DNA of 50,217 nucleotides from contig JAOPVX010000235.1 in assembly GCA_025965975.1 (NCBI GenBank), positions 1 through 50,217 of the forward strand, given 5' to 3'. Within the stretch, counting starts at the first letter, position 1; the number at the start of each line of letters is the position of its first letter. Source of the stretch: Mycobacterium sp. (GTDB taxonomy: Bacteria; Actinomycetota; Actinomycetes; Mycobacteriales; Mycobacteriaceae). A program made the position numbers and the translations under genes. Below, in pieces: positions 25,498-42,335 of the stretch. The notes beneath the pieces are model-generated. The model ran no database searches, had not been told where the DNA came from, and was given only the letters and a program-made list of their open reading frames with translations.

Positions 25498-26267
25498 ATG
25501 CATCCACGCCTCAGCCCGCGGCGCCACCGGCGCCGGCTTCTTGCCGTCGCCGTGAGCTGTGCGGTCGTGTTTTTCGCAGATGGATACGGGCGCGCATCGG
25601 CGAGTCCTGACCAGCCCGGGCAGCTGGATTTCGGTGGCCTGGTGCGGACGTACATTGTTCATGCGCTCGCCGGGGTGAGCCATCCGGTCCGTCTCGTGGT
25701 GAACCTGCATGGTGGTGGGGGTACTGGGCGGGGCGAGGAGGCGCTGACCCACTATGACGCGGTCGCCGACGCGCATGGGTTTGTTGTCGTTTATCCCGAT
25801 GGCATCGATACGAACTGGGCCGATGGACGCGGGGCGTCCGAGCCCGACCGACGCGGGATCGACGACGTCGGGTTCATCTCTGCGCTCGTCGGCAAGCTCG
25901 CCGCCGACTACGGCGTCGATCCGGGGCGCATCTTCGCCACCGGCATCTCCAATGGCGCGTTCATGACCAACCGGCTGGCGTGCGATCGCGCCGATCTATT
26001 CGCCGCGATTGCTCCGGTGTCGGGAACCCTTGGCGTCAACGCCGGGTGTGCGCCGTCGCGACCGGTCGCGGTGCGCGAAACACACGGGACCGCCGACCCG
26101 ATCGTGCCCTCCGACGGCGGCCCGATGATTGGTCGCGGCGGCCCAAGCACGATCGGGTCCGCGCCATCGATGATCGACCGGTGGCGCGAGATTGACGGCT
26201 GCCACGGCGTTCCGACCGAGGACGAACTGCCCAGCGTTGGCGACGGCACCGAAGTACACCGGTTTAG
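25498..26267 (+). pseudogene. 5' part of a split secreted esterase (LpqC/PHB depolymerase-like)
   Basis: The first 256 codons of an exported alpha/beta-hydrolase. It has a signal peptide with a twin-arginine-like basic start (RRHRRRLLAVAVS), oxyanion motif LHGGGG, nucleophile GISNGAF and acid HGTADPIV. The catalytic His is missing here because the gene is interrupted after HRFS. The frame runs 25 bases into the IS end and adds SLDPLMSWD before a stop at 26295. The missing part, with GGGHTWPGG-like sequence, lies at 42164-42335 in the matching phase. The two parts would make 313 residues, normal for the family. The truncated protein should be inactive. Confidence 0.9.
26263..26267. repeat. Left target-site duplication TTTAG
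   Basis: TTTAG directly precedes the left IS end here and directly follows the right IS end at 42159-42163. Only one copy belongs to the intact esterase (codons TTT AGT). Confidence 0.8.
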
Positions 26268-26590
26268 CCTCGATCCACTGATGAGCTGGGATTGACAAGG
26301 CCGGCGAGCGGTTGATCTTGATTTCGGGTTCTGGGCAGCGGCTATCTGCTGGTTTGCCCAGCTTTCCTCTGTTCTCCGCTCGGGCCTTTCGGCGGGTGGT
26401 CAGACTGTGGTGGGCAGTGGCGGTGAGTGCCCGATGGTGTTGCGCCACAGTGCAAGCCAGGCCCTGGGCCAGGGCCAGTGGCTGGGTAGGTGCAGGACGG
26501 GTCGCCGTTGCGCGCGGGTCAGGCGGGGCAGCGATGTTGACGATCTTGCGGCGCGCTCCACCGATGGAGAGCAGGTCAGAGCGGAAAGCT
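26268..26590 (-). mobile_element. Degenerate IS1380-type element, left copy (transposase C-terminus only)
   Basis: The terminus CCTCGATCCACTGATG matches the left end of the copy at 40833. Minus-strand coding remains give the transposase tail (LHLPSHWPWPRAWLALWRNT, then IGHSPPLPTTV). It is clearly homologous to, but diverged from, the right copy, with many scattered differences. The rest of the element is lost. The right limit is approximate. Confidence 0.75.
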
Positions 26591-26835
26591 CTGGCCTGCT
26601 TCTTATTTGGTCGGGTGACGCGTCTATTAGATAGCTCGCTCCAGATACCAAGTGCACCAAATGATTTCGGTCAAAGGCTCGGCGATGACGTCGTCGGACT
26701 CGGGTGGCAGACAGCGCACTGGTTACATGTGCGCTCAATCATCCACGTCAACGCGCAGGATGCCTCCCAGCTGCGCACGGCGCAGGGCGCGCACGCTGCA
26801 ATGGGGCCGGTCCATCGCAGCCTTAACCTGCTCGC

Positions 26836-26932
26836 TGCCGCGCACCTCGGGTTCGGCGGCGGCGGCGTGCACTTCTGCCTGGGCGCCCAGGTGGCCAGGC
26901 ACAACAGTCGCATCGCGGTAAGCCGTCGCTGA
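26836..26932 (+). pseudogene. Cytochrome P450 remnant (haem-binding loop only)
   Basis: The plus-strand frame ending at 26932 reads HLGFGGGGVHFCLGAQVAR then HNSRIAVSRR. HLxFGxGxHxCxGxxxAR is the cysteine-ligand loop of actinobacterial P450s. No other P450 segment is recognisable, so this is a fragment of a lost gene. Confidence 0.6.
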
Positions 26933-27033
26933 CGTACACGTTGCCGGCGGCATCGACCGCCACCCCGGCAATGGAATCGTCAATGACGCCGCCGTCGCAG
27001 AGATCGAGGCCGGTGAACGCCCGGACGGAGCCA
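26923..27033 (-). pseudogene. NHL/propeller-repeat remnant
   Basis: The minus-strand reading includes VRAFTGLDLCDGG, then AGVAVDAAGNVYVSDG, the blade consensus of NHL repeats as in the extracellular domain of mycobacterial PknD-type kinases. Only about one blade remains. Confidence 0.5.
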
Positions 27034-27106
27034 GATCCGCAGGTCTGCCATCCGCTGCTCGGGACCACTGACAGTAAGACCAGGTACTCACTGGTAGTCA
27101 AATGGA

Positions 27107-27118
27107 GTAGTCGACTAC
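27107..27118 (+). promoter_or_regulatory. Palindromic site 7 (GTAG-TCGA-CTAC), pointing right
   Basis: A perfect 12-bp palindrome followed by GCGCG. An extra GTAGTC half-site precedes it (27094-27099). It lies 39 bp before the small gene at 27158 and heads the isoprenoid operon. Confidence 0.7.
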
Positions 27119-27157
27119 GCGCGACACCGCCGTCGACGATCGCCAGAGTTACGGCCC

Positions 27158-27388
27158 ATGACCGCAATATCACCGGCACCCGAACGCTTCCCCGTTGGGA
27201 AGCTTGATCGGCGGCCGGATGCGGGGCTGCGCGGGCACGTACTCAAACAACAGCATTGGCTCGTCGGCTGCCGCACCGGCTCGATGATCCTGCCCAACCT
27301 GTTGCTGATCAACCAGAACGTGCAGGACAACCCGCTGGCGGGCGAACCTAGAAATCGGCTCCCGATGGAGGAGTGGCGTGCTCGCTGA
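27158..27388 (+). CDS. Small protein at the head of the isoprenoid operon, 76 residues
   Basis: An ATG-started frame overlapping the next gene by 11 bp. It has biased codons and a plausible protein sequence (HVLKQQHWLVGCRTGSMILP, then NLLLINQNVQDNPLAG). There is no recognised family, signal peptide or membrane helix. Its position between palindrome 7 and the prenyl synthase start, with overlap, supports real translation. It might be a remnant of a larger gene that now works as a translational lead. Confidence 0.45.
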   Translation: MTAISPAPERFPVGKLDRRPDAGLRGHVLKQQHWLVGCRTGSMILPNLLLINQNVQDNPLAGEPRNRLPMEEWRAR

Positions 27389-28364
27389 CCAAAATTCGCT
27401 GATGGCTCCACCTGATCAATTGACGCTGATCGGTGCTCGACTGCACGAAATCCTCATCACCGGTGGCACTTTCGACGCCATCTACCGCCACATCCTGGCT
27501 GCCCCCGGCAAACGGGTCCGCGCCGGCCTGGTGCTGGCCTGCGCCCGCCTGTTGCCCTCGACCGCCGCCGTGCCAATGCACGACGCCGTCGACCTGGCGT
27601 GCGCGATGGAGATGTTCCACGAGGCGTCGCTCATGCACGACGACATCTGCGACGGTTCGCTCTCGCGGCGCGGTGCCACGTCGGTACCGGCCGCGTTCGG
27701 CATTCGCACCGCCGCCCGGGCAGGATTCCACCTTGCTGGCAACGCCTTACAGGTGCTCGCGCGCGTGCTGGCCGACAACCCGGCGGTTTTCGCCGAGCTC
27801 GGTGAGGTCCCAGGCGTCACCTATTGCGATCGGTTCGCGGACATCTCCTTCGGCCAGCTCGTCGAGACCCTGCCGCCCGCTGTCGACGACGCCGCCCTGC
27901 GTAGGCATTACGAACTCGTGGTCGCGGCCAAGACGGGCACCCTGTTCCGGCTGGCCTGCTCCTACGGCGGCACGGCAGGCGACGTCGACCACGATCGGCT
28001 GCGCGCCCTGATGAGGTACGCCGACCAGCTCGCCCTCGCCTTCCAAATCATGGATGACGTACGCGATGTCGAGGGCGGCGCGTCGCTGGGCAAGGAGGCG
28101 GGCGGCGACCTCGACCGCCGGGTGCCGACCTGGCCGGTAATCGAATGGCTGGCCACCCGGCCGGGCGCTCGTGAGATGTGGCTCTCCGACCAGACTTCCA
28201 GTGCCGACCTGCAGGCCGACCTCGTGCAAAGCGGTGCCACCCGGCTCGCCCGCTCGGTCGCCGTCCGCACCGCCGAGACGGCCCGCCGGGTGATCGACGT
28301 CTTCCCGCCTTCCCCGGCGCACGAGTACCTGTGCAAACTTTCGGTGCGGGTGGTCTCCCGATGA
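27378..28364 (+). CDS. Trans-polyprenyl (probably geranylgeranyl) diphosphate synthase
   Basis: A 328-residue prenyltransferase. The first aspartate-rich motif is HDDICD (near residue 87) and the second is MDDVRD (near 225), each flanked by the usual Arg and Lys residues. It condenses isopentenyl diphosphate with allylic diphosphates. Chain length cannot be fixed by eye; the downstream head-to-head synthase suggests a C20 (or C15) product. The GTG start follows GGAGGAGTGGC and overlaps the upstream frame. ATGA overlaps link it to the next two genes. Confidence 0.85.
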   Translation: MLADQNSLMAPPDQLTLIGARLHEILITGGTFDAIYRHILAAPGKRVRAGLVLACARLLPSTAAVPMHDAVDLACAMEMFHEASLMHDDICDGSLSRRGATSVPAAFGIRTAARAGFHLAGNALQVLARVLADNPAVFAELGEVPGVTYCDRFADISFGQLVETLPPAVDDAALRRHYELVVAAKTGTLFRLACSYGGTAGDVDHDRLRALMRYADQLALAFQIMDDVRDVEGGASLGKEAGGDLDRRVPTWPVIEWLATRPGAREMWLSDQTSSADLQADLVQSGATRLARSVAVRTAETARRVIDVFPPSPAHEYLCKLSVRVVSR

Positions 28365-29653
28365 GCACGCGGGGGCTCGGCGCCCTGGCCCTGGGGCTGC
28401 GGCAGCTGCACCGCGAACCCGACCTGGCCATGTTGCGTGCGGCCCGGTCACCGGACGGCTTGGCCCGGCTTGCGCTGGTCCCAGCGGCCCGGAACCTGGG
28501 CGTCGCAATCAATTTCCTGCCCGCAGACCTACGGTTCGAGGCCACCGCTGCCCTGCTGGCCTGCCGGGTTCTCGATGCCTACGAAGACCTCATCATCGAC
28601 CGCCCGCTGGCGAGCGGTGCCGTCCTGAGCGCCGTGGGCTATCTGACCGGCACCACCGACACGCCGCCTCGGCCACCGCACGCGGTCGCCGTCCGCGACA
28701 GCGAAGCCGTCGACTTGGTGCTGGCCGAGCGCATCCGCGACGTCCGAGCGCTACTGTCGGCGCTGCCCTTCTCGGGACGGGAAAGGGTCGGCCAGATGCT
28801 GGTTGACGTCGGCCGCGTGATGGCGCGCAACCTCGATTCACCCCTGCCGCGGCTCGCCTACAGCGAGGGCGTGCTCGGGCGGGTGGCGCTCTACGCGTGC
28901 TCACTAGTCACCGAAAACGCCTGCAGCGAGGCGGATCTGGGCGAGCTTGCCGGGTGCATCGGCGTCATCGCCCAACTAGCCAACGACCTCCGGGACGGCG
29001 AACTGACCCTATACGGTGCCGGCGACCGCCAGGATCTGACCAGGGCGGTGATGCTGCGGCTGCTGGTCCCGGCGCTGGGTGGCTTCGCCCTGCTGGCCGG
29101 GCTCGGCCCGCGAACTCCCAGCCGCGGCGCCCGGACGGCGATGGCCTACATGACCATCACGACGACCGCTTTCCTGTGCGCCGCCGTCGGGTCACCTGCG
29201 CCGTACCGTCGGCGGCTGCGACTGGGCGCGGCCGTGCTGGCCGCGCGCTCCCCGGGTCACTGGGCCAAGATGCTGCAGCGGGTGCGGCGATCCGCCGACG
29301 ACGCGATCCACCGGTTGCTCAATGGTTCACGCGACCTTTCCGCTGACACCGGTCTCGCTGCCGTGCCGGGCCCAGCTGCGCAGGTGCTCGGTCTGGACGA
29401 CGATCGCTCATCGTCGCCCGCGATGGGGCCGCTGATCGTCGGCACCACCTTCGCCCTCGTGCATGCGCTGCCGGAACAACCGCTGACCGGCGAACTGCCC
29501 GCCCCGCAGGTGCGCCGCATGATGATCGCCGATCATCTGGCCTTCGGCGCCCTGGAACGGTTGCGACCCCGCGACACCGACGCGATGGAGGTCCTCGCCG
29601 CGGAATTCCAGCTCGCGGCCCTCGACACGACTGCCCCAGGAGCCCACCCATGA
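28361..29653 (+). CDS. Phytoene/squalene-synthase-like (head-to-head prenyl synthase) protein
   Basis: A 430-residue protein starting at an ATGA overlap. Two acidic motifs fit the trans head-to-head family: VLDAYEDLIID near residue 72 (DxxED) and ANDLRDGE near 206 (NDxRD, normally NDxxDxxED). These bind the diphosphates of two prenyl substrates through magnesium. The C-terminal 190 residues exceed the usual 290-310-residue length and contain hydrophobic stretches; they resemble nothing I know. It probably condenses the product of the preceding enzyme, but an altered reaction is possible because both motifs are non-standard. Confidence 0.65.
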   Translation: MSTRGLGALALGLRQLHREPDLAMLRAARSPDGLARLALVPAARNLGVAINFLPADLRFEATAALLACRVLDAYEDLIIDRPLASGAVLSAVGYLTGTTDTPPRPPHAVAVRDSEAVDLVLAERIRDVRALLSALPFSGRERVGQMLVDVGRVMARNLDSPLPRLAYSEGVLGRVALYACSLVTENACSEADLGELAGCIGVIAQLANDLRDGELTLYGAGDRQDLTRAVMLRLLVPALGGFALLAGLGPRTPSRGARTAMAYMTITTTAFLCAAVGSPAPYRRRLRLGAAVLAARSPGHWAKMLQRVRRSADDAIHRLLNGSRDLSADTGLAAVPGPAAQVLGLDDDRSSSPAMGPLIVGTTFALVHALPEQPLTGELPAPQVRRMMIADHLAFGALERLRPRDTDAMEVLAAEFQLAALDTTAPGAHP

Positions 29654-30663
29654 TCACCGAATTGACCGGTAGCACAAGACCGCCCGTCGCGTCATCCGAA
29701 CGAACGCCCTTCAGCCGGAAGGTGCTAAAGCTCGAGCACCCGGCGAATGTCGGCCCGCTGATACACGTCGCGTGCTGGTTCGGGCTGCTGGCTTTTGGTC
29801 TGCTCGTGCCGGCCGCCACGAACTGGTACCTGGCGGTGCCGCTGATCGTGACGTTGTCGCTGCTGAACCTCTCGATCACCATCGGCGTGCTACACATGCA
29901 CACCCATCGGCCGCTTTTCGTGTCGCGGCGGGCGAACCGAGTGATCGACGTGTTGTGCGGCGTGCCTGCCGCGTTGACGGCGGCCGAGATGCGCGAGGTG
30001 CACGTCCTCAACCACCACCGCTACGACGACGGGCCCGGCGACGTTACCTCGACAGAGGGGAGTGAGCGGGGGCTGCGCGCTGTCTGGTACTGGATCAGGT
30101 ACGGCACGATCGTCAAGAAGCACACCGTGCGAACGGTTTTCGCAGCCGATGCGTCGGCCGGCCGGCGCAAGCGGCGCCGCCAGTTCGTGATCGACTTGAC
30201 GCTGGTCGTGGCGCTGCTGCTGGCCACCTGGGTGGTCGCCGATGCCACCCGGAATGTGCTCTTCTACTGGATCCCGTTCCTCGTGACCCAGGTCAACTCC
30301 GGCTATTTCGCCTGGCTGAGCCACGCCCCGGCGCGGGTCTATGAGGACGGCCCGAGCAAATCGGTGAACACGGTGGGCAACTGGCTCAACTTCTTGATCT
30401 TCAACCAGGGCTACCACAGCGTGCACCACCGCTATCCCGGCATCCACTGGAGCCAGATCCCCGACAAGCTCGACTTCATGAGCCAGGTCCGGCCCGCCGT
30501 CATCGTGCCCTATTGGATGGTGCTCAGCTCGGCGTGGCGCCTCATCGTTCCCAAAGCCTTCCTCGACGCGACCTACGGCGAGCGGTGGAAGGCCAAATTC
30601 GAAAAGCGGATGGCGCGGGGCACCATCCGCTCGCGGTACCTGCCGTGGTTCGCATGGATCTGA
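29650..30663 (+). CDS. Membrane fatty-acid desaturase/hydroxylase-like di-iron protein
   Basis: A 337-residue integral membrane protein with the three histidine boxes of the desaturase/carotenoid-hydroxylase superfamily: HMHTH near residue 82, HVLNHHRYDD near 118 and HSVHHRYPGIHW near 257. Membrane helices lie around 40-80 and 180-225. It could hydroxylate, desaturate or ketolate the terpenoid made by the upstream enzymes. The ATG overlaps the previous stop. Confidence 0.75.
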   Translation: MITELTGSTRPPVASSERTPFSRKVLKLEHPANVGPLIHVACWFGLLAFGLLVPAATNWYLAVPLIVTLSLLNLSITIGVLHMHTHRPLFVSRRANRVIDVLCGVPAALTAAEMREVHVLNHHRYDDGPGDVTSTEGSERGLRAVWYWIRYGTIVKKHTVRTVFAADASAGRRKRRRQFVIDLTLVVALLLATWVVADATRNVLFYWIPFLVTQVNSGYFAWLSHAPARVYEDGPSKSVNTVGNWLNFLIFNQGYHSVHHRYPGIHWSQIPDKLDFMSQVRPAVIVPYWMVLSSAWRLIVPKAFLDATYGERWKAKFEKRMARGTIRSRYLPWFAWI

Positions 30664-31439
30664 TCACGCCGCGCCAGGCAAGGGACGTGCTGACGGACCG
30701 CCGTCGGCTCCTCCCAGCCCTGCTGGCGTTCGTCGGATACGCCTTCGCCGGGGTGACCGTGCCCATGATGCTGCTGTTCGCCGGGGGCTGGTGGCTGCCG
30801 AAGACCGTCGACGCCGGACCGCACCTGTCGACCGGTCCGTCGGTGGTGATCGACCTGCTGCTCGTCGCGTTGTTCGGCTTGCAGCACTCGGGCATGGCCC
30901 GGGGTCCATTCAAGGCCTTTATCACCCGCTGGGTGCCCGAAGCCCTGGAGCGCACCGTCTATGTCGTGGCGGCCAGCGTGGCCGTCTGGGTGCTGTGTCT
31001 GGGTTGGCAGCCTCTGCCGCAACGGATCTGGTCGTCCACAGGCATCCTCGGAGCGGTACTCGACGCCGGGTTCTGGCTCGGCTGCGCGCTGGTCTACGCG
31101 GCCACCCTGTTGCTGAACCACTTCCACCTACTCGGTTTCAGTCAGGCCTACCGGGCCTACGTGCGCCGCGTGCCGGACGCGATCTCCGACCGGCTCCAGG
31201 TGCAGGGGCCCTACCGCCTAGTGCGGCACCCACTGATGACCGGTCTGCTGCTGTGCTTCTGGTGCGCAAGCACATTCACGGCCGGGCACCTGCTGTGGGC
31301 GGCCAGCCTGACGGGCTACATCCTGCTGGGCACCGCGCTGGAGGAGCGCGACCTCATCGCTCGGTTCGGCGCGGCTTACCGCTCGTACATAAGTCGAGTG
31401 CCCGCCTTCTTCCCGTCACCGCTGAAGAAATTGGACTAA
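30654..31439 (+). CDS. Membrane methyltransferase of the NnrU/MddA/ICMT type
   Basis: A 261-residue protein with five to six hydrophobic helices. The C-terminal motif (GPYRLVRHPLMTGLLL, then ALEERDLIARFGAAYRSYISRVP) is the S-adenosylmethionine-binding signature of isoprenylcysteine/methanethiol methyltransferases (RHPxY-like and EExxLxxxFGxxYxxY). The ATG lies 10 bp inside the desaturase gene. In this operon it may O- or S-methylate a polar group on the terpenoid (inference). Confidence 0.7.
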   Translation: MDLITPRQARDVLTDRRRLLPALLAFVGYAFAGVTVPMMLLFAGGWWLPKTVDAGPHLSTGPSVVIDLLLVALFGLQHSGMARGPFKAFITRWVPEALERTVYVVAASVAVWVLCLGWQPLPQRIWSSTGILGAVLDAGFWLGCALVYAATLLLNHFHLLGFSQAYRAYVRRVPDAISDRLQVQGPYRLVRHPLMTGLLLCFWCASTFTAGHLLWAASLTGYILLGTALEERDLIARFGAAYRSYISRVPAFFPSPLKKLD

Positions 31440-31444
31440 AGCGC

Positions 31445-33013
31445 ATGAACCAGACCGGACCAGTCGCGGCCGACAGCCACGAGCAGCTGGAGACCACCGT
31501 TGCGATCGTCGGCAGCGGGTTCTCGGGTCTCGGCATGGCGATTCAGTTGCGCAAACGGGGCCGTGAAGACTTTCTGATCTTGGAGAAATCGCACGATGTA
31601 GGCGGGGTATGGCGGGACAATACCTATCCGGGCTGCGGCTGTGACGTGCCGACGACCGTATACTCGTATTCGTTTGAGCAGAACCCGTTCTGGTCCAAGA
31701 TGTGGTCTTCGCAACCCGAAATCTACGCATACCTACGAAGAATGGCCGACAAGTACGACCTACGCCGCAAGACGTTGTTCGGCGCTGAGGTCGTGGCAGC
31801 CTCCTGGGATTCGGCGGCCTCGAGGTGGCGCCTGCGTTCAGCCGACGGACGCACCATCATCGCCCGATTCCTGGTGATGGGCATCGGCCCGATGACTGCG
31901 CCAAAATTGCCGGACCTCAAGGGCATTGAGTCATTCACCGGGGCGGCGTTCCACTCCGCACGATGGGATCACACCGTGGATCTGACCGGTAAGAAGGTCG
32001 CCGTAATCGGCACCGGCGCCAGCGCAATCCAATTCGTGCCGGTCATCGCCGAGCAGGTGGGGCAGCTGCAGCTGTATCAGCGCACCCCGCCGTGGGTTCT
32101 CACCCGCTTCGACCCGGGCATCCCCAAGTCACTTCGGACGCTGTTCGCCAAGGTGCCATTGATCCGCAGCATCTTCCGAGCAACGACGTACTGGATCGCA
32201 GAGGCGCAGGCCATCGCGCTGCACGGGTACGGGATCCTGCACAAGCCGCTGGAATGGGCCGCCAAGGCCCACATCCGCAAGCGAATCAAGGATCCGGCGC
32301 TGGCGGCCAAGCTCACCCCCGACTATCAGATCGGCTGCAAGCGCATCCTGTACTCCCCCACGTACTACCCGGCGCTTGCGCGGCCCAATGCCGAGGTCGT
32401 GACGGACGGTATCGCAGAGGTGCGACCCGGGAGCATCGTGACCGTCGACGGCACCGAGCGCGCGGTCGACGTCATCATCTACGGCACTGGGTTCAACCTC
32501 ACCGGTCCCGTCGAATCGCTGAATATCCGCCTCGGCGATGGCGAGTCGTTGATGCAGCGGTGGCGCACCTCGGGTATGCAAGCTCACATGGGTGTGACCG
32601 TCGCTGGGATGCCCAACGCGTTCTTCCTTATGGGCCCCAACAGTGCGATCGCGCACAACTCGATCGTGTTCATGATCGAGCAGCAGATCAAGTTGGTGCT
32701 GCATGCCATGGACGGTATGCACCAGCGCGCGGCCACCGCCATCCAAATCCGCACGGATGCCCAGGAGAGGTTCAACGGGGACATCCAGCGCCGGCTCGGG
32801 AGGCGGGTGTGGTCATCCGCGGGTTGCAGAACTTATTTTGTCGATGACGACGGTGTGAATCGGGTCCTCTGGCCGGGTTTCAGCTGGGAGTACTGGCGTG
32901 CGGTGCGCAACTTCGACGAGACCCAGTACGAGTTCACCGGCACGGACCAAGACGCCGCCGCCGGCGACGCTCACGCGTCTGGATACGCAAACCATGTTGC
33001 GGCCCCCGCTTAG
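31445..33013 (+). CDS. Baeyer-Villiger-type flavin monooxygenase
   Basis: A 522-residue enzyme. The first Rossmann motif is VGSGFSGLG near residue 24 and the second, for NADPH, is VIGTGASA near 190. The fingerprint FTGAAFHSARWD (near 166) matches FxGxxxHxxxWD of type I Baeyer-Villiger monooxygenases. They insert oxygen next to ketones using FAD and NADPH. The start is the ATG five bases after the methyltransferase stop. It is the last gene of the operon that starts at 27158, before a new palindrome. Confidence 0.85.
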   Translation: MNQTGPVAADSHEQLETTVAIVGSGFSGLGMAIQLRKRGREDFLILEKSHDVGGVWRDNTYPGCGCDVPTTVYSYSFEQNPFWSKMWSSQPEIYAYLRRMADKYDLRRKTLFGAEVVAASWDSAASRWRLRSADGRTIIARFLVMGIGPMTAPKLPDLKGIESFTGAAFHSARWDHTVDLTGKKVAVIGTGASAIQFVPVIAEQVGQLQLYQRTPPWVLTRFDPGIPKSLRTLFAKVPLIRSIFRATTYWIAEAQAIALHGYGILHKPLEWAAKAHIRKRIKDPALAAKLTPDYQIGCKRILYSPTYYPALARPNAEVVTDGIAEVRPGSIVTVDGTERAVDVIIYGTGFNLTGPVESLNIRLGDGESLMQRWRTSGMQAHMGVTVAGMPNAFFLMGPNSAIAHNSIVFMIEQQIKLVLHAMDGMHQRAATAIQIRTDAQERFNGDIQRRLGRRVWSSAGCRTYFVDDDGVNRVLWPGFSWEYWRAVRNFDETQYEFTGTDQDAAAGDAHASGYANHVAAPA

Positions 33014-33065
33014 CCGCCCGCACGGGGGTTACTCCTAGTCATGGGGCGTGACAGATGCAATTCGA

Positions 33066-33077
33066 GTGGTCGACTAC
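33066..33077 (+). promoter_or_regulatory. Palindromic site 8 (GTGG-TCGA-CTAC), pointing right
   Basis: One mismatch in the left arm (GTGG). The flank GCACG fits the family. It lies 37 bp before the DXP synthase ATG at 33115. Confidence 0.65.
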
Positions 33078-33114
33078 GCACGACAAGCGCACGTTCGATC
33101 GACAGAGTTGTGGC

Positions 33115-34980
33115 ATGACAGTAACTTCGCTGGCATACGACCGCTCCATCCCGGAGCTTGATCTGGACCGTGACGATACGGCCGGAGCTTCGGTTTCAGC
33201 TGACGTCCTCAGCCGTGTCCGGGGCCCGCGCAGCCTGGACGGGTTGTCGCGTGCCGAGTTGACAAAGCTCGCTGCCGAGATCAGGGCATTCCTGATTGAG
33301 AAGGTGTCGGTGACCGGGGGGCACCTCGGCCCGAACCTCGGTGTGGTCGAGCTGACGATCGCGCTTCATCGCGTATTCGATTCACCCCGTGATGCGTTGA
33401 TCTTCGACACCGGCCATCAGGCCTACCCGCACAAGCTTTTGACAGGCCGCCGAGACCGCTTCGACCATCTGCGTGCGTCCGGCGGTCTGTCCGGGTACCC
33501 GTCGCGAGCGGAGAGCGAGCACGATTGGGTGGAGTCCTCGCACGCGTCTGCCTCCCTTTCCTACGCCGACGGGTTGGCAAAGGCGTTCGAACTGGCCGGC
33601 AATCAGGATCGCAGCGTCGTCGCCATCGTCGGTGACGGTGCGCTCACCGGTGGAATGTGCTGGGAGGCAATCAACAACATCGCTACCGGCAAGGGGCGTC
33701 GTGTGATCGTAGTTGTCAATGACAACGGCAGGTCTTACGCACCGACGATCGGGGGACTTGCTGAGCGCCTGTCCAGCCTGCGGATGCGTAGCGGTCACCG
33801 TCCGCGGATGTTGTTCGCGGACTTGGGTATCAAGTATCTAGGCCCGATCGACGGACACGATGTGGTCGCGCTCGAGCGGGCTTTGCGAAAGGCAAAGGAA
33901 GTTGGTGGCCCGGTAGTCGTCCATACTGTCACCCGCAAGGGAATGGGATACGGTCCAGCGGAGGAAGATCCAGCCGACCGAATGCATGCCTGCGGTCCCT
34001 TCAATCCGCGCAATGGCGAACCCAAGTCGCCCACTGACGCGAAGCAGTGGACGGACGTATTTGCCACCGAGCTGCTCGAGTGGGGCGGGCGCCGCGAGGA
34101 TCTCGTCGCGATCACCGCCGCGATGTCAGGCCCGACCGGTTTGGCGGAGTTCGGAGCGCGGTTTCCGAACCGACTGTTCGACGTAGGGATCGCCGAGCAG
34201 CACGCGGTGACGTCCGCTGCGGGGTTGGCGCTCGGCGGTATGCACCCGGTGGTCGCTGTCTACTCCACGTTCCTCAACCGTGCCTTCGACCAAGTAATCA
34301 TGGATGTCGCTCTGCTGAAATTGCCGGTGACATTCGTGCTGGACCGGGCGGGCATTACCGGGCCTGATGGGGCCAGTCACAACGGGATGTGGGACTTGTC
34401 GCTGCTGGGCATCGTGCCCGGCATGCGAGTCGCCGCCCCACGCGATGCTTCCTCGCTCCGCGAGCAGCTCGGCGAAGCGCTCGGGCTAGACGACGGCCCC
34501 ACTGCGATCCGGTTTCCGAAGGGTCCAGTGGGTGCCGATATAGCAGCCGCGGAACGAATAGAGGGCGTAGATGTGCTTCTTCGCCCGCAGGATCCGGACG
34601 TTCTGCTGGTGGCGGTCGGACCACTGGCCGGGATCGCACTGACAGCGGCGGCGACGCTCGCCGAGCGTGGTGTGGCCGTCGCGGTGGTGGATCCCCGATG
34701 GGTGCTGCCAGTGCCCGACCAAGTGGTGAAGATGGCCAGCGATGCCCAGCTGGTCGTGACACTGGAGGAGTCGGGGCTACATGGCGGGTTCGGGTCAGCA
34801 GTCGCGGCCCGGATGCGGGATGCCCGAATCGACACACCGGTGCGCAGTGTCGGTGTGCCGCAGCGGTTTCTCGCTCACGCCTCCCGGGGCGAGATCCACG
34901 CAAGTCTCGGCCTGACGGCTGCCGACCTGGTCACCAGCATTGGCTCGTGGGTCGAGCGGCCGGGCGGACAACTGTGCTAG
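33115..34980 (+). CDS. dxs: 1-deoxy-D-xylulose-5-phosphate synthase
   Basis: A 621-residue enzyme that makes DXP from pyruvate and glyceraldehyde 3-phosphate, the first step of the MEP isoprenoid pathway. It has the thiamine diphosphate motif [15 protein letters not shown], the N-terminal [13 protein letters not shown] and [16 protein letters not shown], and the transketolase central domain ([20 protein letters not shown]). The ATG before [10 protein letters not shown] is chosen; the reading frame is open further upstream through palindrome 8. As a member of this cluster it is probably a second, pathway-dedicated copy, comparable to dxs2 near idsB in M. tuberculosis; this is inference. Confidence 0.92.
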
Positions 34981-37247
34981 AACGAATCGCTCGCCTCGCG
35001 ATAGCGGCGCCGCGGCGGGTCATCGCGGTCGCGGTGCTGATCATGGTGGGCGCCGGGATCTTTGGCATCGGGCTAACCAAGAGCCTGTCCGCCGGGGGCC
35101 TTCACGATCCGAACAGCCAATCGTCCCAGGCCTCCCGGCTGCTGTCGGAGAAGTTCGGCCAGGGCGATATGCAGATGACCATTGCCGTCACGTCCGAAGC
35201 CGGCGCACGAAGTCCCGTCGCACGCGCCGTCGCAACCGAACTCATCCAGCGTCTGCAGGAGTCGCCGTACGTCGTCGGTGTGAACTCGGCATGGGCCGCA
35301 TCGCCTGCCGCGGCCACATTGATCAGCGAAGACGGCAAGACCGGCTTGATTGTCGCGGGCATCAGCGGCGGGGAGAACGGTGCACAGAAGCACGCGAAGG
35401 CGCTGGCTGATCAGCTGGTGCACGACCGCAATGGCGTTACAGTGCGCGCGACCGGCGATGCAATGACCTACGTACAGATCAACGCGCAAACCGAAAAAGA
35501 CCTGCTTCTGATGGAGTCCATCGCCATCCCGCTGAGTTTTGTGGTGCTGGTGTGGGTGTTCGGCGGCGTGCTGACCGCGATGCTGCCATTGGCCGTCGGC
35601 GGGTTCGCGATTCTCGGTTCGATGGCCGTGCTGCGCGCCGTCGCGCTGGTGACCGATGTGTCGATTTTCGCACTAAACGTGACTGTGGCTATGGGACTGG
35701 CGCTGGCCATCGATTACACGCTGCTGGTGATCAGCCGGTTCCGCGATGAGCTGGCCGATGGCGCCGGGCGCGAGGAGGCCTTGGTGCGCACGATGGCAAC
35801 TGCGGGGCGCACCGTGCTGTTCTCGGCGGTGACAGTGGCGTTGTCAATCGTGGCGATGGTGCTGTTCCCAATGTATTTCCTGAAATCGTTTGCCTACGCG
35901 GGGATTGGAGTGGTTGCGTTCGCTGCCATCGCCGCGATCGTGGTAACGCCGGCGGCGATCATGTTGCTCGGGGACCGACTGGACGCACTGGATGTGCGCC
36001 GACTGGGCCGGCGCGTCTTCGGTCGTCCGGAACCGGGGCAGCGCCCGGTTGAGCGAGCCTTCTTTTACCGCTCGACCAAGTTCGTGATGCGGCGGGCGAT
36101 TCCGGTGGGCATCGGCATCATCACACTGCTGTTGATGGTCGGCGCACCTTTCCTCGATATCAAATGGGGCTTCGCCGACGACCGCGTGCTGCCGTCGTCG
36201 GCCTCGGTGCGCCAGGTTTCTGAGCAGCTGCGCAGCGATTTTGGCGGCGATGCCACTGCCAACGTGATCGTCGTGGTTCCGGATACGAACGGGGTGACGC
36301 CCGACGAGCTCGCCCACTATGCGGCCCAGCTGTCACGGGTTCCCGGGGTGACCTCGGTGTCCACGCCCGGCGGTGTGGTCGTTGGCGGCTCGCTGGCCGG
36401 GCCGCCTGCCGCGCCGACAGCCATCAAGGATGACAGCGCTTTCTTCACCGTTGGCAGCGCAGCGCCGCTCTTCTCCCCGGCCTCGGACATCCAGCTGGAC
36501 CGGTTGCACGCCGTCGCCGGTCCCGGCGGCCAACGTGTCCTGATGACCGGCTTGGCGCAGATCAACCGCGACACTTCGACCGCGATCACGGGCCGGCTGC
36601 CGCTGGTCCTCAGCCTGATCGCGGGGATCACGTTTGTGGTGTTGTTCTTGCTGACCGGTAGCGTGGTCTTGCCCCTGAAGGCGTTGCTGCTCAACATCTT
36701 GTCTCTGAGCGCCGCGTTCGGAGCGTTGGTCTGGATCTTCCAAGATGGGCATTTGGGCGCACTCGGCACCACGTCAACTGGCACCCTCATGGCCCCCATG
36801 CCGGTGCTGTTGTTCTGCATCGCATTTGGCCTGTCGATGGATTACGAAGTGTTTCTGGTGTCGCGAATTCGTGAGTACTGGCTCGAGTCACCGCGCTCCG
36901 GGGCCGATAACGATGAAAGCGTCGCGCTAGGGCTGGCTCACACCGGTCGGGTGGTGACGGCTGCCGCACTCGTGATGTCGATTTCGTTCGCCGCGTTGAT
37001 CGCGGCGCAGGTGTCGTTCATGCGGATGTTGGGTGTCGGACTGGTGTTGGCGGTACTGGTCGATGCGACGCTGGTGCGGATCATGCTGCTGCCGGCGTTC
37101 ATGCACGTGCTGGGCCGCGGCAATTGGTGGGCGCCCAACCTGCTGGTCCGGATTCATCAGCGGTTCGGGATCAGCGAGACAGCGACGGCGGAGCGGACCC
37201 AGGCTGCCTCGGAGCAGACCGGTCGCTCTGTCGGTATCGGTGCCTAA
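34974..37247 (+). CDS. MmpL-family RND transporter
   Basis: A 757-residue protein starting at a GTG that overlaps the dxs stop (GTGCTAG). It has two repeats, each a periplasmic loop followed by a bundle of helices. The RND/MMPL signature is in the first ([22 protein letters not shown]) and second ([20 protein letters not shown]) helix sets, both with the conserved Asp and Tyr of proton relay. It is smaller than classic 950-residue MmpL proteins, similar to short MMPL family members. Coupling to dxs suggests it exports the terpenoid or a lipid carrying it (inference). Confidence 0.88.
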
Positions 37248-37265
37248 CCCGACTGTGGGCGTATG

Positions 37266-38701
37266 TCACCTGCCTGTCGGTACCCAGCTGCCGCAGCATC
37301 CGGCGGGCACTCGGTGCGGCAGCTTGATGCTCGCGATGCTCTGCAGCGTCTGCGCGTCCAGGATCGCTAGTTCGCTGCGGTCGGTGCTCCGGTCGTACAC
37401 GTACCCCAGCACGACGCCGTCATCCTCGGCGGCGTCAGAGGACGAAGGATGGAAGATGAACTCGCCGACCGCCTTTTCGGCGCCGAAGCAGCGCGACTGC
37501 GTGCTGTTGCGGAGGAAGTCGTGCTTGAGCAGGGTGTTGCCGAAGACGACCTCGCCAGTGGGCGCATAGCCGTACCGATGCCGCTTGCCGATGAGACGCT
37601 CGTCCACGCGCGGAAATTCTTGCCCACGATCGTCGAATCGCGATTCGCGCACCTTGCCGTCGGCGAGATCGATGGTCCAGCGGTCCAGTGTCCGGTCCTT
37701 CGCTCGGTCCTATTTAGTTGCGGTCGAACATCTTCGGGTGCCGCACCACGTCGAGCACGATGGTGTCTCCGTCGTCGTAGGCGTTCATGGGATGGAATAC
37801 GTAGCAGGGTTCCACCTCAAACCAGCGAACGTCGGCGTTGCTGCCATCGCGCGGCATCACACCGACGCGGGCGGGGTGCTTCGGATTCCACGAGTACGGG
37901 AACGGGTGGTCGTGGATCTTTGAACCGGGCTGGATTGCGGCGATCAGATCCGGGATGCGGACCCTGCCGACAACGGCCGACAGCAGCAGCCGCGCGGGCA
38001 GACGCAGTCCGGGTGGCATTCTGACCGCCGCGGCTCGTCGGGCGTCGAAGGTTACCGGCAGGTCGTAGAACACGATGTGACGCTCGGTCAACGACAGGTT
38101 GTCCATCATGGCTGCCTGCCACCTCGATGTCCACGGTGCGGCGCGCCCGACCATCGACGCCGATCACCGAGTATTGGACCCGGTTGCCGCGATACGGGCT
38201 GTGCGAAACACCATGCAGCTCGCCGGTTTCCGGGTCGCGTTTGGGGTGAGCGGTGTACCCGTGGGTCATTGTTCCGTCAAAGTCGCAGATACGTACGGTT
38301 TCCAGCTCGTCGGTCAACTCGTAGGGTGCGACACCGGCCTCCATCAACGCGAGGGTCTTGCCTGCATGTCCGATCACGTTGGTGTTTGGGCCGATTGGCA
38401 CGGTGCCGAAGCGCCGGATCGGCGACCGCTCGCCCAGCGCCTTGGCTACGTGCGGACCACGCATCCAGCGGTTGCGGTACCACTCCGCCTTGCCGTCGCG
38501 GATGCGGATGCCGTGCACCATGCCGTCGGCCATAAACCAGTGATGACGTAAGGGATCGAGCTCACCGATCGGATTGGATCCGTTCCGCAGGTACCGGCCG
38601 TCGAGGTAATCGGGGATGTTCCCGACGACCTCGAGGTCGGTGTGGGTGTACTCCTGCTGCAGCGGAGTGAAGTGGCCCTCCAGGTAGGGGTTTGTCACCA
38701 C
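37266..38701 (-). pseudogene. Carotenoid cleavage oxygenase, broken by frameshifts and a nonsense codon
   Basis: Three frames together give a carotenoid oxygenase (RPE65/CCO family) of about 478 residues. Segment one (38701 to about 38110) has NPYLEGHFTPLQQEY, GRYLRNGSNP, WFMADGMVHGI and THGYTAHPKRDPETG. Segment two (about 38110 to 37714) has LTERHIVFYDLPVTFD and CYVFHPMNAYDDG. Segment three (about 37690 to 37266) has VRESRFDDRGQEFPRVDERL and KHRYGY. The breaks are a frameshift near 38110, an in-frame TAA at 37714-37716 and a second frameshift near 37690. Several of the His ligands of the iron are still present. It follows the P450 by 7 bp, in one operon. Confidence 0.88.
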
Positions 38702-38708
38702 GCCACCT

Positions 38709-40076
38709 TCAATGTCGCGCCGTCACCCGGGCCGGAATCGGTGCTCCGGCAACCGTCGTCATCGGAACGGCGAGCGGGAAATCTGTTTCGAGGGAGTCGA
38801 TTTCGGTGCGCCTTATGACGGTGGCCAACGCAAGGGTTGCCTCGAGCATGGCGAAATGGTCACCGATGCACGACCTCGGGCCCGCGCCGAACGGCATGTA
38901 TTGCCAGCGGTCGCGGTTCTGAGAGTTTTCCAGGGTGAACCGGTCGGGATCGAAAACCAGCGGGTGCTCCCAGAGCGTGGCATCGCGTTGTACGGCGTAC
39001 ACGCCGTACACGACGATGGTGCCGGCCGGGACTCGGTAGCCGTCGACCGCGATGTCCTGCAGCGTCGTCCTGCCGATCGCGGCTGCCGGCGGGCACAGCC
39101 GCAGCGCCTCGCGCAGCACCTGAACGGTGTATCCCAGCCTGGGAACGTCCTCGGGTGTCAGCTCCCGATCGCCGATTGCAGTTGCCTCCGCGGCAACCCG
39201 CTGCTGAATCTCGGGGTTGCGGCCGAGGGCCCAAAACGCGTACGCCAGCGTGGTGGCGGTGGTGTCGTGGCCGGCGGCCATGAATATCACCAGCTCGTGG
39301 CAGATCTCGTCATCGGAGAGCTCCCGGCCGGTCGCGGGGTCCGTCGTTGCGATCAGCGCGTGTACGAGCGGTGCATCCTGGGCTGGGTCTCGACGGCAGC
39401 CCTGCAGGATGTCCTCGGCCAGCTGGTGCAACTTCGCGCTTGCGGTGCGCGCGCGGCGTCGTGCAGGCGTCGGCAACCATCGCGGCGCACGAACCGGCCG
39501 CAGGGAACGATCCGCGACGTAGCTGAGTACAACCCGCAACGGCTCGGCGATCGCGTCGGCGCGTTCATCGAGATTCAGGCCGAACACCGAGCGGCCCAGC
39601 GCGCGCAGCGTCAGCAGGCGAGCTTCGACGTCGAGATCGATCACACTACCGTCGAGCCAACCCTCTCGGACCGTCTCGGCAGCCCGCGACATATGACCGG
39701 AGAAGGTGCGGACACGTTGTTTGGTGAAGACGGGCTGCAGCGCTCTTTTGCGCCGCACCCACTCCTTGTGGGGGAGATCGAATAGGTTGTCGCCCAGCAG
39801 ATGCCGCATTTCGGCATGAAGTGTGGTTTTGTCGACAAAGGCATCGCTGCGGCTGAGAAAGTCCCGTCCGCCTTGCGGTGACGTCACGATGACGACGGGC
39901 GGTATCAGCCGCGTAATGCGCGGGCTGAACTGGGTGACCGGACCACCGGCATCGCGCAGCGTTTCCAGCCCGGTATGGAAATCCCTGAGCGCCTTGAGCC
40001 GCTGGCGCAATGGCAGCGAATTTTTCGGCGCACGTGGCAGCGCGCCGACTTCGATCCGATCGCTCAGCTCGGTCAC
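38709..40076 (-). CDS. Cytochrome P450
   Basis: A 455-residue class with the full set of P450 motifs: I-helix AGHDTTA, ExxR in EALRLCPP, and the haem loop FGAGPRSCIG with the Cys ligand. The sequence resembles the CYP137/CYP138-like group of mycobacterial P450s, but I do not name a subfamily. The GTG start follows GGAGGAACCGA. Palindrome 9 lies 79 bp upstream on the same strand. With the downstream carotenoid oxygenase it would oxidise or cleave the product of the cluster. Confidence 0.88.
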   Translation of the reverse strand: MTELSDRIEVGALPRAPKNSLPLRQRLKALRDFHTGLETLRDAGGPVTQFSPRITRLIPPVVIVTSPQGGRDFLSRSDAFVDKTTLHAEMRHLLGDNLFDLPHKEWVRRKRALQPVFTKQRVRTFSGHMSRAAETVREGWLDGSVIDLDVEARLLTLRALGRSVFGLNLDERADAIAEPLRVVLSYVADRSLRPVRAPRWLPTPARRRARTASAKLHQLAEDILQGCRRDPAQDAPLVHALIATTDPATGRELSDDEICHELVIFMAAGHDTTATTLAYAFWALGRNPEIQQRVAAEATAIGDRELTPEDVPRLGYTVQVLREALRLCPPAAAIGRTTLQDIAVDGYRVPAGTIVVYGVYAVQRDATLWEHPLVFDPDRFTLENSQNRDRWQYMPFGAGPRSCIGDHFAMLEATLALATVIRRTEIDSLETDFPLAVPMTTVAGAPIPARVTARH

Positions 40077-40155
40077 TCGGTTCCTCCACCGCAAGCCCCA
40101 ACCGTGGTGTTGTGGGCATGCTCGAGAATGCCCACTCGAATTCGGGGCGCATAGA

Positions 40156-40167
40156 GTAGTTCAGTAC
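40156..40167 (-). promoter_or_regulatory. Palindromic site 9 (GTAC-TGAA-CTAC on the minus strand), pointing left
   Basis: One arm deviates (GTAC). The minus-strand flank is TCTATG. It lies 79 bp before the P450 start. Nothing else is seen in 40168-40386. Confidence 0.5.
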
Positions 40168-40386
40168 TTCAGTTTTCTCGATGTCCTTCGCAACATGCGG
40201 GTGGTGCTCGGGATGGGCAGCCAACACAGCTCGATGTAACTAACGCTGAGAACGGCGGACTATAAATCCGTGCTGCACGGCAGGCACGCCGATGCTCGCG
40301 TCTCCGCAGGTCGTTTCACGTAGTTTGGCGTCGTTTCGCGTCGGCGGAATCAGCGTTTCTGCAGGTCAAGGGAATTTCGGCGCCGA

Positions 40387-40408
40387 GTTCGATTCCCGGC
40401 AGCTCCAC
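40387..40408 (+). other. tmRNA (ssrA) 3'-end fragment, probable attachment-site scar
   Basis: GTTCGATTCCCGGCAGCTCC plus AC has the T-loop and acceptor end of mycobacterial tmRNA as I remember it. The gene body is absent and CCA is replaced after CAC. tmRNA 3' ends are classic integration sites for islands, so this marks an att site or an island border. No integrase is encoded in the window. Confidence 0.6.
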
Positions 40409-40779
40409 TCGAATCGGCACCTAAACGTCCTTACTCGAACCTGGCGAACCTAAACGAGTCAGTCGAGCATTTCTGGGTTCAAGCGCCGCTGGGTTCACTC
40501 ATTCCCACAGGTCAGGGTTTTGCGTGGCCGGCGGTGGTGGGCGGTGCGTTCAACTGGATAGCGGTCCGACGGCGGATACGGCGCGAGCTACTTGGCGGTG
40601 CGGCCGGTCGCGGGGGCTGGCGTGGTCGCCCTACGCCACCCTCGGCAACGGGGCAGTTGCGGCGACTACTCGCAGGACTCAACCGCAGCCCTCGAGTACG
40701 CCCTGGCGGCTGGTCGCCACTTTTGCACGTGGGCAAGAAGAGTCGCCGCCATGGTCGCGATTATGTACGAGATGCCAGA
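40409..40779. other. Non-coding stretch with a short direct repeat
   Basis: I see no convincing gene. CCTAAACG occurs at 40420-40427 and 40449-40456 next to the tmRNA-like fragment and could be the remains of integrase arm sites; this is weak. Open frames here lack ribosome-binding sites and any family resemblance. Confidence 0.4.
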
Positions 40780-40826
40780 CCCGCGAAAGGCGCGGGCTTT
40801 CCGCCGGTTCAATAACAATCCGGCGG
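40780..40826. terminator. Two adjacent hairpins just outside the right IS copy
   Basis: CCCGCG-N5-CGCGGG (40780-40796) is followed by CTTT, and CCGCCGG-N12-CCGGCGG spans 40801-40826. The pair sits two bases before TTTAG and the IS left end. They resemble a terminator pair, or may be the target the IS entered. Confidence 0.55.
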
Positions 40827-40832
40827 ATTTAG

Positions 40833-42158
40833 CCTCGATACACCGATGTTCCGTGGTGACTAGTGTCGGCGATTGTTGATCTTGATTATTTGGGTGTGGG
40901 CGTGAGTTATCTGCTGGTCTGTCCAGCTTTTCCTGTACGCTCCGGTCGGGCCTTGTCGGCTGGTTGGTCAAGTTGTCGTGGGCAGTGGTGGGCTGTATCC
41001 GATGGTGTTGTGCCACAGCGCAAGGCAGGCCTTGGACCAGGGCCAGTGGGTGGGCAGGTGCAGGCCCGGTCGGCGTTGCGGTCGGGCCAAGCGGGCGGGG
41101 ATCTTGATGATCTTGCGCCGTAGCGTCGATCCGCGGGCTCGGGTGTGTTGGTCGCCGGCCAGGACGCCGGCAGCGCGCATCAGAGATCCACAACCCGGTG
41201 TCGGGATCTTGGACCGCGCCGGGGTAACGCACCGGGGTCCATCCGTCGTCGGGGATCGCGTCGATCGCTTTCTGCACAGCGGTGTTCTTGGTCAGGACCA
41301 GCGAGAATTGGGCGCGCGCGCGGCGGGCGGCACCGATGACCGCGCGGGTGCCGTAGGCGCTGTCACCGCGCACCAGGATCTGTCCGCTGGCCCCCGCGGC
41401 CCGCGCGGTGGCGATCGCCTGAGCGACCATCCGCCCCGCACCCTTGCCGGAGTTGGCCCGCCCGGCGCGCAGCCGCATCCCGGCGATCACCGGCGTGGCC
41501 ATCTCGGTGCTGATCGTGGTCGCCAGCGGGGACAGGCCCTTGCGCAGGACCTGCTTGCCGGCGATCTTGGTGTGCCCGTAGCTCGCGCCCTGCTTCGCGT
41601 GCCCGATGTCCCCGAACGCGCGCTGATCGAGCCCGGGTAGCAGATCGACGTGGGCACACAGTGCCACCAGATGTGCGCCCAGCACCGCCTCCAGCTGACG
41701 GGCATGGCCGAAGGTAAACTCCCGCAACAGGGTTCCGATCGTCGAGGGCGCATACACGCCGCCGAACAGGGTCTTCATTCCGCCGCTGCGCAACACCTCG
41801 ACGTCGTCGATGCAGTCCGCTCCCGCACACATCCCGACGATCAGGGTGGCCAATTTGGGGGCGGGGTTGGCCGAGCCCGACTTGATCCGCGGCGCCGCGA
41901 TCTGCACCATCTGCGCCAACAGATCCGACATGCCGGTCCGTTCGGCCAGCGCCATCACCGGCACCAGACCGGCACACGACACGAGGTTGTCATCGTCGAA
42001 CACCGCAGAATCTACGGAGAATCTGTGCGAAACTTGCACCGGAAGTGCCTTTCCGAACTGGGTCCGATTAATGCGTGAGAACATCAATCATCGCAGTTCA
42101 GAGGGCACTTTCCTCATTTCGACACCCAGATGCCCATCGGTTTGTCGGTGGATTCAGG
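40833..42158 (-). mobile_element. IS1380-type insertion sequence, right copy, 1326 bp, with both ends
   Basis: Left end CCTCGATACACCGATG and right end (read inward) CCTGAATCCACCGACA match as imperfect terminal inverted repeats. TTTAG flanks it on both sides (40828-40832 and 42159-42163). The element is shorter than the roughly 1.65 kb usual for the family because of an internal deletion in the transposase gene. Confidence 0.8.
40968..42084 (-). pseudogene. IS1380-type transposase, internally deleted and out of frame
   Basis: The N-terminal 300 residues are intact in one frame (HRFSVDSAVFDDDNLVSCAG, DIDD-like acid residues in GADCIDDVEVL, and RGDSAYGTRAVIG with a catalytic Asp). They end at WISDA near 41180. 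The C-terminal part continues in another frame (RAAGVLAGDQHTRARGSTL to LHLPTHWPWSKACLALW). Roughly 100 residues that normally carry the last acidic catalytic residue are missing at the junction. The enzyme cannot be functional. Confidence 0.8.
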
Positions 42159-42163
42159 TTTAG
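42159..42163. repeat. Right target-site duplication TTTAG
   Basis: It matches the copy at 26263-26267 and restores the esterase codons TTT AGT when one copy and the insert are removed. Confidence 0.8.
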
Positions 42164-42335
42164 TTCAACGGCGTGTTCGGGCGGCTCGGCAGCGGTGTTC
42201 ATGCAGGTCGACAACGGCGGACACACATGGCCCGGCGGTACCCAGTACCTGCCCACGGCCATCATCAGCCCGACCAGCCACGCCTTCGACGCCTCCGAAA
42301 CCAGCTGGCAGTTCTTCGCCAGCCACGCCCAATAA
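42164..42335 (+). pseudogene. 3' part of the split esterase
   Basis: In the same phase as 25498-26267 it continues as STACSGGSAAVFMQVDNGGH, then TWPGGTQYLPTAI and ends FASHAQ. The GGHTWPGG motif supplies the catalytic His missing from the 5' part. It has no start signal of its own. The distance from the 5' part is the 15.9-kb insertion. Confidence 0.9.

What the first reader, a model, noticed from the sequence alone, without database searches (positions are those of the whole stretch)
26263..42163. A 15.9-kb isoprenoid island splits an esterase gene with base-exact borders, like a composite transposon
Seen in sequence: the 5' part of a PHB-depolymerase/LpqC-like gene ends at TTTAG (26263-26267) and its 3' part resumes after TTTAG (42159-42163). 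Deleting 26268-42163 gives one 942-nt frame (313 codons plus stop) that regains the GGHTWPGG catalytic His. IS1380-type ends in the same orientation lie at both borders (26268 and 42158). Inference: IS-flanked DNA inserted as a unit with a 5-bp duplication. Alternative: two separate IS insertions followed by recombination, since the right copy also has TTTAG on its own left (40828).
Basis: seen in the sequence. Interest (0 to 1): 0.9.

Follow-up and report, generated by a model that had tools for sequence, protein, structure and literature searches.

The report
Terpenoid genes lodged inside transposon ends
In a mycobacterium, about 15.9 thousand bases carrying terpenoid-making genes sit between the two ends of a small jumping element that once cut an esterase gene in two; the borders are real and exact, but the evidence does not show that the whole block jumped in as one piece.

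Summary
TTTAG lies at 26263, 40828 and 42159, and IS1380-type ends abut them. Searched as two separate pieces, the esterase halves project onto intact homologues exactly 6 nt apart in 22 of 26 loci, so the outer TTTAG pair is a true 5-bp target duplication left by one transposition event with ends at 26268 and 42158.

Unit insertion of a composite transposon is not shown. The left "IS" is a 286-bp remnant, and the right one is a dead 1,326-bp element lacking about 300 bp. They are not copies of each other (72-78% identical; sister grouping rejected, p 0.0036). This IS group prefers [ACT]T[AT]A[AG] targets, TTTAG among them, so the third TTTAG is weak evidence. The best match of the left end among 396 genomes, and the only other match of the right end among 158, are the two ends of one 375-bp element in another mycobacterium. 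That favours, narrowly, a single IS hit in the esterase into which the cargo came later by IS-IS recombination (0.45), over a transposition unit like those of ISEcp1 or ISPme1 (0.38).

The cargo is a largely intact but patchily distributed terpenoid cluster. Overall this is a decayed case of a known kind of rearrangement. Interest 0.3.

The parts
25498..26267 (+). 5' part of an Esterase_PHB (PHB-depolymerase/LpqC-like) gene, ending in the first TTTAG
   Evidence: Pfam PF10503 E 5.8e-7; homologues run on past the border
26263..26267 (.). TTTAG, left copy of the target duplication
   Evidence: sequence; halves contiguous on homologues with one 5-bp copy
26268..26553 (-). ISL: 286-bp remnant, the end at the 3' side of an IS1380-type transposase gene
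   Evidence: 91% to G054 and 89% to G381 elements; 15/16 end match; similarity stops at about 26553
26554..27377 (.). degenerate inner left stretch with no gene recognised
   Evidence: no IS similarity beyond chance; elsewhere in the genome only matches of 49 to 88 bases
27378..28364 (+). polyprenyl (GGPP-type) synthase
   Evidence: PF00348 E 4.6e-45
28361..29653 (+). divergent squalene/phytoene-synthase-like protein
   Evidence: no Pfam, NCBIfam or PDB hit of its own; 6 of 14 family members weakly match SQS_PSY, best E 0.0056
29650..30663 (+). fatty-acid-desaturase family oxygenase
   Evidence: PF00487 E 6.4e-36
30660..31439 (+). NnrU/MddA-like methyltransferase
   Evidence: PF07298; NF045656 E 5.9e-65, below its cut-off
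31436..33013 (+). flavin monooxygenase (FMO-like)
   Evidence: PF00743 E 7.3e-16
33055..34980 (+). additional 1-deoxy-D-xylulose-5-phosphate synthase
   Evidence: TIGR00204 above cut-off; a separate dxs lies on G000:C3
34977..37247 (+). MMPL-family transporter
   Evidence: PF03176 E 1.6e-77
37263..38701 (-). carotenoid-cleavage (RPE65) oxygenase gene, reading frame broken
   Evidence: three separate pieces match PF03055; stops in all three frames
38709..40094 (-). cytochrome P450
   Evidence: PF00067 E 1.1e-68
40387..40408 (+). 22-base tmRNA-gene 3' end, probably a relic attachment core
   Evidence: one exact copy in the window, none expected; matches the 3' ends of two tmRNA genes of the genome, and with its flank a place on G000:C86
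40828..40832 (.). inner TTTAG beside the left end of ISR
   Evidence: sequence; the stretch just left of it is no recognisable IS end (3/16)
40833..42158 (-). ISR: IS1380-family element with a dead transposase, about 300 bp missing internally
   Evidence: NF033539 180.0 bits at cut-off 180; relatives with both ends found are 1647-1661 bp
41177..41183 (.). 7-nt overlap at the internal junction of ISR
   Evidence: blastn pieces 1-351 and 345-1326 against longer relatives
42159..42163 (.). TTTAG, right copy of the target duplication
   Evidence: sequence
42164..42335 (+). 3' part of the esterase gene with its GGHTWPGG motif
   Evidence: tblastn of this piece alone to homologues

Best explanation
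One IS1380-family element (call it X) transposed into a TTTAG site of the esterase gene and left a 5-bp duplication; its two ends are the present outer borders, 26268 and 42158. Later, DNA carrying the terpenoid cluster and another IS of the same family (B, whose left end is 40833 with its own TTTAG) recombined with X. This split X, brought the cargo inside it, and left ISR as a fusion of B's left part and X's right part. Decay then removed most of the left fusion and about 300 bp of the right one, so the structure cannot move by itself now. Shown: the borders, the target duplication, the IS family, the target preference, that ISL and ISR differ, and the decay. Inferred: that both outer ends belong to one element type, and that the cargo arrived by recombination.
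For: Esterase halves contiguous with exactly one 5-bp copy in 22 of 26 loci and at a locus that shares the divergent MarR gene. The best match of ISL in 396 genomes is G054 at 91%. The right end of ISR was sought in 158 genomes with a 30-base pattern made from ISR and G054 (N at the three positions where they differ, up to 3 mismatches): 2 genomes match, the window's own and G054. In G054 these are the two ends of one 375-bp element, and its right end agrees with ISR at 27 of 30 bases by my count from the printed strings, against at most 21 of 32 for the other elements compared. The left part of ISR is not ISL-like (p-AU 0.0036). Its nearest rows (L125, L169, L124; no starred branch) differ from that of its right part (L123, 100/99), and the right part held together with L124, L125, L126, L129 and L169 is rejected (p-AU 1.2e-6). 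Recombination among these IS looks common: 7 of 30 elements have unequal flanks (one of the seven holds an N), mostly of target type on both sides.
Against: The AU test does not reject ISR-left together with L123 (p 0.34), so ISR as one unmixed element remains possible. Rank correlations of left and right parts did not decide (ISR-left/ISR-right 0.62, ISL/ISR-right 0.47, cross pairs 5-95% -0.29 to 0.66). L133, the other close relative of ISL, has a different right part (ISR-right with L133 rejected, p 0.0125). The flanks of the G054 element are unequal (GTTAG, CTAAG), so it may itself be a recombinant. The inner TTTAG must equal the outer one by chance (3 of 23). The AU groups were named after earlier trees had been seen.
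Confidence: 0.45

Rival explanations
1. Transposition unit. The transposase of ISR, when intact, paired its own outer end (42158) with the end of an older IS remnant (26268), skipped its inner end (40833), and moved the whole 15.9 kb into TTTAG as one piece, as described for ISEcp1/ISEc9 and the ISPme1 transposable modules.
For: The whole block has a 5-bp duplication. The cargo lies at the 3' side of the ISR transposase, as in transposable modules (PMC9330008 section 24), and ISEc9 is reported to have moved a 36-kb segment (PMC12116815, passages). The alternative end at 26268 matches the element ends at 15 of 16. ISL and ISR are different elements.
Against: No second copy of the block turned up in the genomes searched; of 19 other loci of the cluster, one has an IS1380 transposase match in the fetched stretch (bare IS ends were not sought there). 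It does not explain why both outer ends match one element in G054. The transposase is dead, so movement cannot be seen.
Confidence: 0.38
2. Classical composite transposon made of two copies of one IS.
For: Same-orientation IS1380-type sequences at both borders, with an outer duplication.
Against: ISL and ISR are 72-78% identical, like distinct members of the group, and their sister grouping is rejected. ISL keeps only 286 bp.
Confidence: 0.05
3. An earlier unit ended at 40827 with a weak, one-ended terminus, and ISR inserted afterwards into its right TTTAG.
For: It makes all three TTTAG copies expected; ISEcp1B transposition with distal ends of only 3 to 12 matching bases is reported (PMC12116815, passages).
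Against: The stretch before 40828 scores 3/16, reached by 96% of window positions. Its polarity is opposite to known modules. ISR would have had to hit one site among many (43 target-type 5-mers in 50 kb).
Confidence: 0.05
4. Assembly artefact or contaminating contig join.
For: The genome is a draft in 449 contigs with 4.6% estimated contamination.
Against: Both halves of one gene with an exact 5-bp duplication at the two IS ends would hardly arise from a false join. G+C is even across flanks and cargo (0.61-0.66).
Confidence: 0.04

Closest known systems
Transposable modules (TMos) of IS1380-family ISPme1 in Paracoccus, and ISEcp1/ISEc9 transposition units
   Same: IS1380 family, 5-bp duplication, cargo at the 3' side of the transposase, variable distal end, sizes up to 36 kb reported (passages and one section read)
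   Different: Here the distal end is a real IS end of another element; the transposase is dead; unit movement is not shown; the cargo is a biosynthetic cluster
Composite transposon
   Same: Two IS-type sequences in the same orientation at the ends, with an outer target duplication
   Different: The two are not copies, and the left one is a 286-bp remnant
IS-mediated cointegration or integration by recombination between IS copies (recalled, no call)
   Same: Cargo between hybrid IS copies; outer flanks from one IS, inner flanks from the other
   Different: Left hybrid mostly lost; the donor molecule is not found

Membership tests
IS1380 family (ISR) | IS1380-type transposase | tested here: met
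   NF033539 180.0 bits at cut-off 180, E 5.7e-53; PF13701
IS1380 family (ISR) | terminal inverted repeats and 4-5 bp duplication | tested here: met
   15/16 and 14/16 ends, TTTAG on both sides; 23 of 30 relatives with both ends found, of 45 loci inspected, have equal 5-bp flanks
IS1380 family (ISR) | complete transposase gene | tested here: not met
   1326 bp against 1647-1661 bp, about 300 bp missing
Composite transposon | two copies of the same IS | tested here: not met
   72-78% identity, AU p 0.0036
Composite transposon | target duplication around the whole block | tested here: met
   22 of 26 homologous loci
TMo / ISEcp1-type transposition unit | cargo beside the 3' side of one IS copy, duplication outside the unit | tested here: met
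   transposase on - strand, 3' side at 40833 facing the cargo; duplication
TMo / ISEcp1-type transposition unit | moved as one unit | not testable with these tools
   no second copy in the genomes searched
ssrA-integrated genomic island | two attachment sites and an integrase | tested here: inconclusive
   one core copy in the window; no integrase among the reading frames given to Pfam, which were not all frames of the island

The most novel reading that the evidence does not exclude
A 15.9-kb IS1380-family transposition unit with ends from two different elements carried a whole terpenoid pathway as one block in Mycobacterium, which would give this patchy cluster a transposon-based route of spread.
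Probability: 0.35. Interest if true: 0.5.

Novelty: new member of a known kind. Interest (0 to 1): 0.3.

Why it matters
It gives an order of events (esterase broken by an IS, terpenoid genes inside the IS ends) and a 5-bp target preference for a mycobacterial IS1380 group. With a sister genome, one could decide between transposition as a unit and IS-IS recombination as the route by which a patchy biosynthetic cluster spreads in mycobacteria.

Tried and rejected
Close relatives with an empty site: none seen among the 396 sampled genomes of the genus; the five best esterase DNA matches are 73-76% identical, so the 15-base empty-site string of the finding could not be tested usefully and was not searched. 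Plasmid origin of the cluster: the squalene/phytoene-synthase-like protein has no match in 72,556 plasmid records; the IS itself has relatives on actinobacterial plasmids, at 70-74% for ISR and 70-81% for ISL in the rows listed (12 of 80 and 10 of 25 records). Structure of that protein: AlphaFold model mean pLDDT 52, too poor to use, so no fold search was made; a profile of it finds no solved structure. A first comparison of IS left and right parts used a wrong column range (stray alignment columns of ISL) and its left part is withdrawn; replace it. One search failed by a script error (wrong record picked) and was repeated. The right end of ISR in viral contigs: no exact match to a 22-base pattern. 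Literature: listings only, and no paper; passages of PMC9330008, PMC12116815, PMC3281130, PMC3925955 and PMC3832669 and one section of PMC9330008. No mycobacterial IS1380 unit with biosynthetic cargo was named in the titles and abstract starts of those listings, which cover open-licence PMC papers only.
Full report
What was checked. The window is the whole contig C303 of a 7.44-Mb draft genome (449 contigs; contig length). Its genus group holds a genome whose contig 1 has the length (615,278) and the matching IS position of the Mycolicibacterium chubuense NBB4 plasmid record, so the host is a mycobacterium in the broad GTDB sense (an inference).

Borders. TTTAG stands at 26263-26267, 40828-40832 and 42159-42163. 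TTTAG occurs only 6 times on the + strand of the window. The left esterase piece (255 aa) and the right piece (56 aa) were searched separately by tblastn against 26 homologous loci, 24 of them distinct. In 22 of 26 the projected end of the left piece and start of the right piece lie 6 nt apart in the same frame, which equals one TTTAG plus one base. The four others (-15, -36, +3, -87) had left alignments that stopped short. In G335 the esterase stands next to a divergent MarR gene (65% identical), as in the window, and is uninterrupted; the other flanking genes tested were not found within the 20 kb fetched there. The outer TTTAG pair is therefore a real target duplication of one insertion event with ends at 26268 and 42158.

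The IS group. Searching the right IS in 396 genomes gave matches in 72, this one included. Of 45 loci inspected (the best-scoring and some further places), both ends were located in 30; these elements are 1647-1661 bp long, and 23 of the 30 have identical 5-bp flanks: CTAAG 8, CTTAG 4, ATAAG 4, TTTAG 3, CTAAA 2, ATTAG 1, TTAAG 1 (the four ATAAG elements look like copies of one element). The target is thus about [ACT]T[AT]A[AG]. TTTAG is a normal target, and a third TTTAG beside ISR has a chance of roughly 3 in 23, not 1 in 1024. Seven of the 30 have unequal flanks (one with an N), most of them target-type on both sides, which suggests frequent recombination between copies.

The two IS sequences. 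ISL is a 286-bp remnant: its similarity to IS elements stops at about 26553. ISR is 1326 bp; against longer relatives its positions 1-351 and 345-1326 match with about 300 bp missing between them and a 7-nt overlap. ISL and ISR are 78% identical by local alignment and 72% over the whole left part, where 24 distinct relatives have a median of 70% among themselves. Holding them together as sisters is rejected (p-AU 0.0036). So these are two different elements, not two copies.

Which end goes with which. ISL groups with G054 and L133 (100/99), and G054 is its best match in 396 genomes (91%). A 30-base pattern of the right end, made from ISR and G054 with N where they differ and allowing 3 mismatches, occurs in 2 of 158 genomes: here and in G054. 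In G054 it closes a 375-bp element whose left 346 bases are the ISL-like ones. Hence the outer ends of the island look like the two ends of one element type, while the left part of ISR is of another type. This favours a single IS insertion in the esterase that was later opened by recombination with another IS that brought the cargo. The right part of ISR goes with L123 (100/99), and grouping it with L124, L125, L126, L129 and L169, among which lie the nearest rows of its left part, is rejected (p-AU 1.2e-6). Against it: ISR-left with L123 is not rejected (p 0.34), the placement of ISR-left has no starred branch, rank correlations are undecided, the flanks of the G054 element are unequal, and L133 has an ISL-like left end but another right part (ISR-right with L133 rejected, p 0.0125). 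The alternative, movement as one unit by an ISEcp1- or ISPme1-like mechanism, fits the geometry: the cargo lies at the 3' side of the transposase, as a review describes for transposable modules (PMC9330008, section 24 read), and a 36-kb ISEc9-mediated acquisition with a 5-bp repeat has been reported (PMC12116815, passages read). I hold the two nearly even, 0.45 and 0.38.

Cargo. Between the IS sequences lie a polyprenyl synthase, a divergent squalene/phytoene-synthase-like protein, a desaturase-family oxygenase, a methyltransferase, a flavin monooxygenase, an additional DXS, an MMPL transporter, a carotenoid-cleavage oxygenase with a broken frame and a P450. The first five genes overlap by 4 nt each, so they are probably one operon (inference). 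The synthase-like protein is found in 19 of 396 genomes of the genus including this one. At 19 of the 20 other places found (the G355 fragment was left out) the polyprenyl synthase is beside it in 18, desaturase and methyltransferase follow in six and the desaturase alone in one; in the stretches fetched (up to 20 kb, some cut by contig ends) none has all nine genes, and one has an IS1380 transposase match. The cluster is thus patchy, and on this evidence not generally tied to these IS.

Further relics. The 22 bases at 40387-40408 match the 3' end of tmRNA genes, a common attachment site of mobile elements (recalled); the genome's fragments hold two tmRNA genes. The Rfam tmRNA match here is far below its gathering score. 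The cargo may have passed through such an element, but no integrase was seen among the frames searched.

Verdict. The borders are real and exact; the island is a decayed IS1380-bounded insertion, not a demonstrated composite transposon. It is a new case of a known kind.

Noticed in passing
40296-40413 (core 40387-40408): 22-base 3' end of a tmRNA gene, with about 87 flanking bases like a place on G000:C86; the genome carries two different tmRNA genes (tags ADSNQRDYALAA and ADSNQRDFALAA) on C86 and C179. Looks like a relic attachment site of an ssrA-integrating element.
   Followed up: partly
28361-29653: A conserved 430-aa protein family (19 of 396 genomes of the genus) next to a polyprenyl synthase, without Pfam, NCBIfam or PDB hit of its own; 6 of 14 members show a weak squalene/phytoene synthase signal. 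Possibly a new branch of that enzyme family.
   Followed up: partly
L163 (G054:C1, about 5271022-5271396): A 375-bp MITE-like IS1380 derivative with an ISL-like left end, an ISR-like right end and unequal flanks.
   Followed up: yes
L209 (G187:C1, about 3713000-3715600): An IS1380 element (flanks TTTAG and CTTAG) beside a truncated copy of the squalene/phytoene-synthase-like gene: a second case of this IS group at this cluster.
   Followed up: partly
37263-38701: Carotenoid-cleavage oxygenase gene with a broken frame, while the neighbouring cargo genes are open.
   Followed up: partly
26554-27377: Stretch between ISL and the cargo in which no gene was recognised; a - strand reading frame looks like NHL/PknD-type repeats by eye (no family search made).
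   Followed up: no
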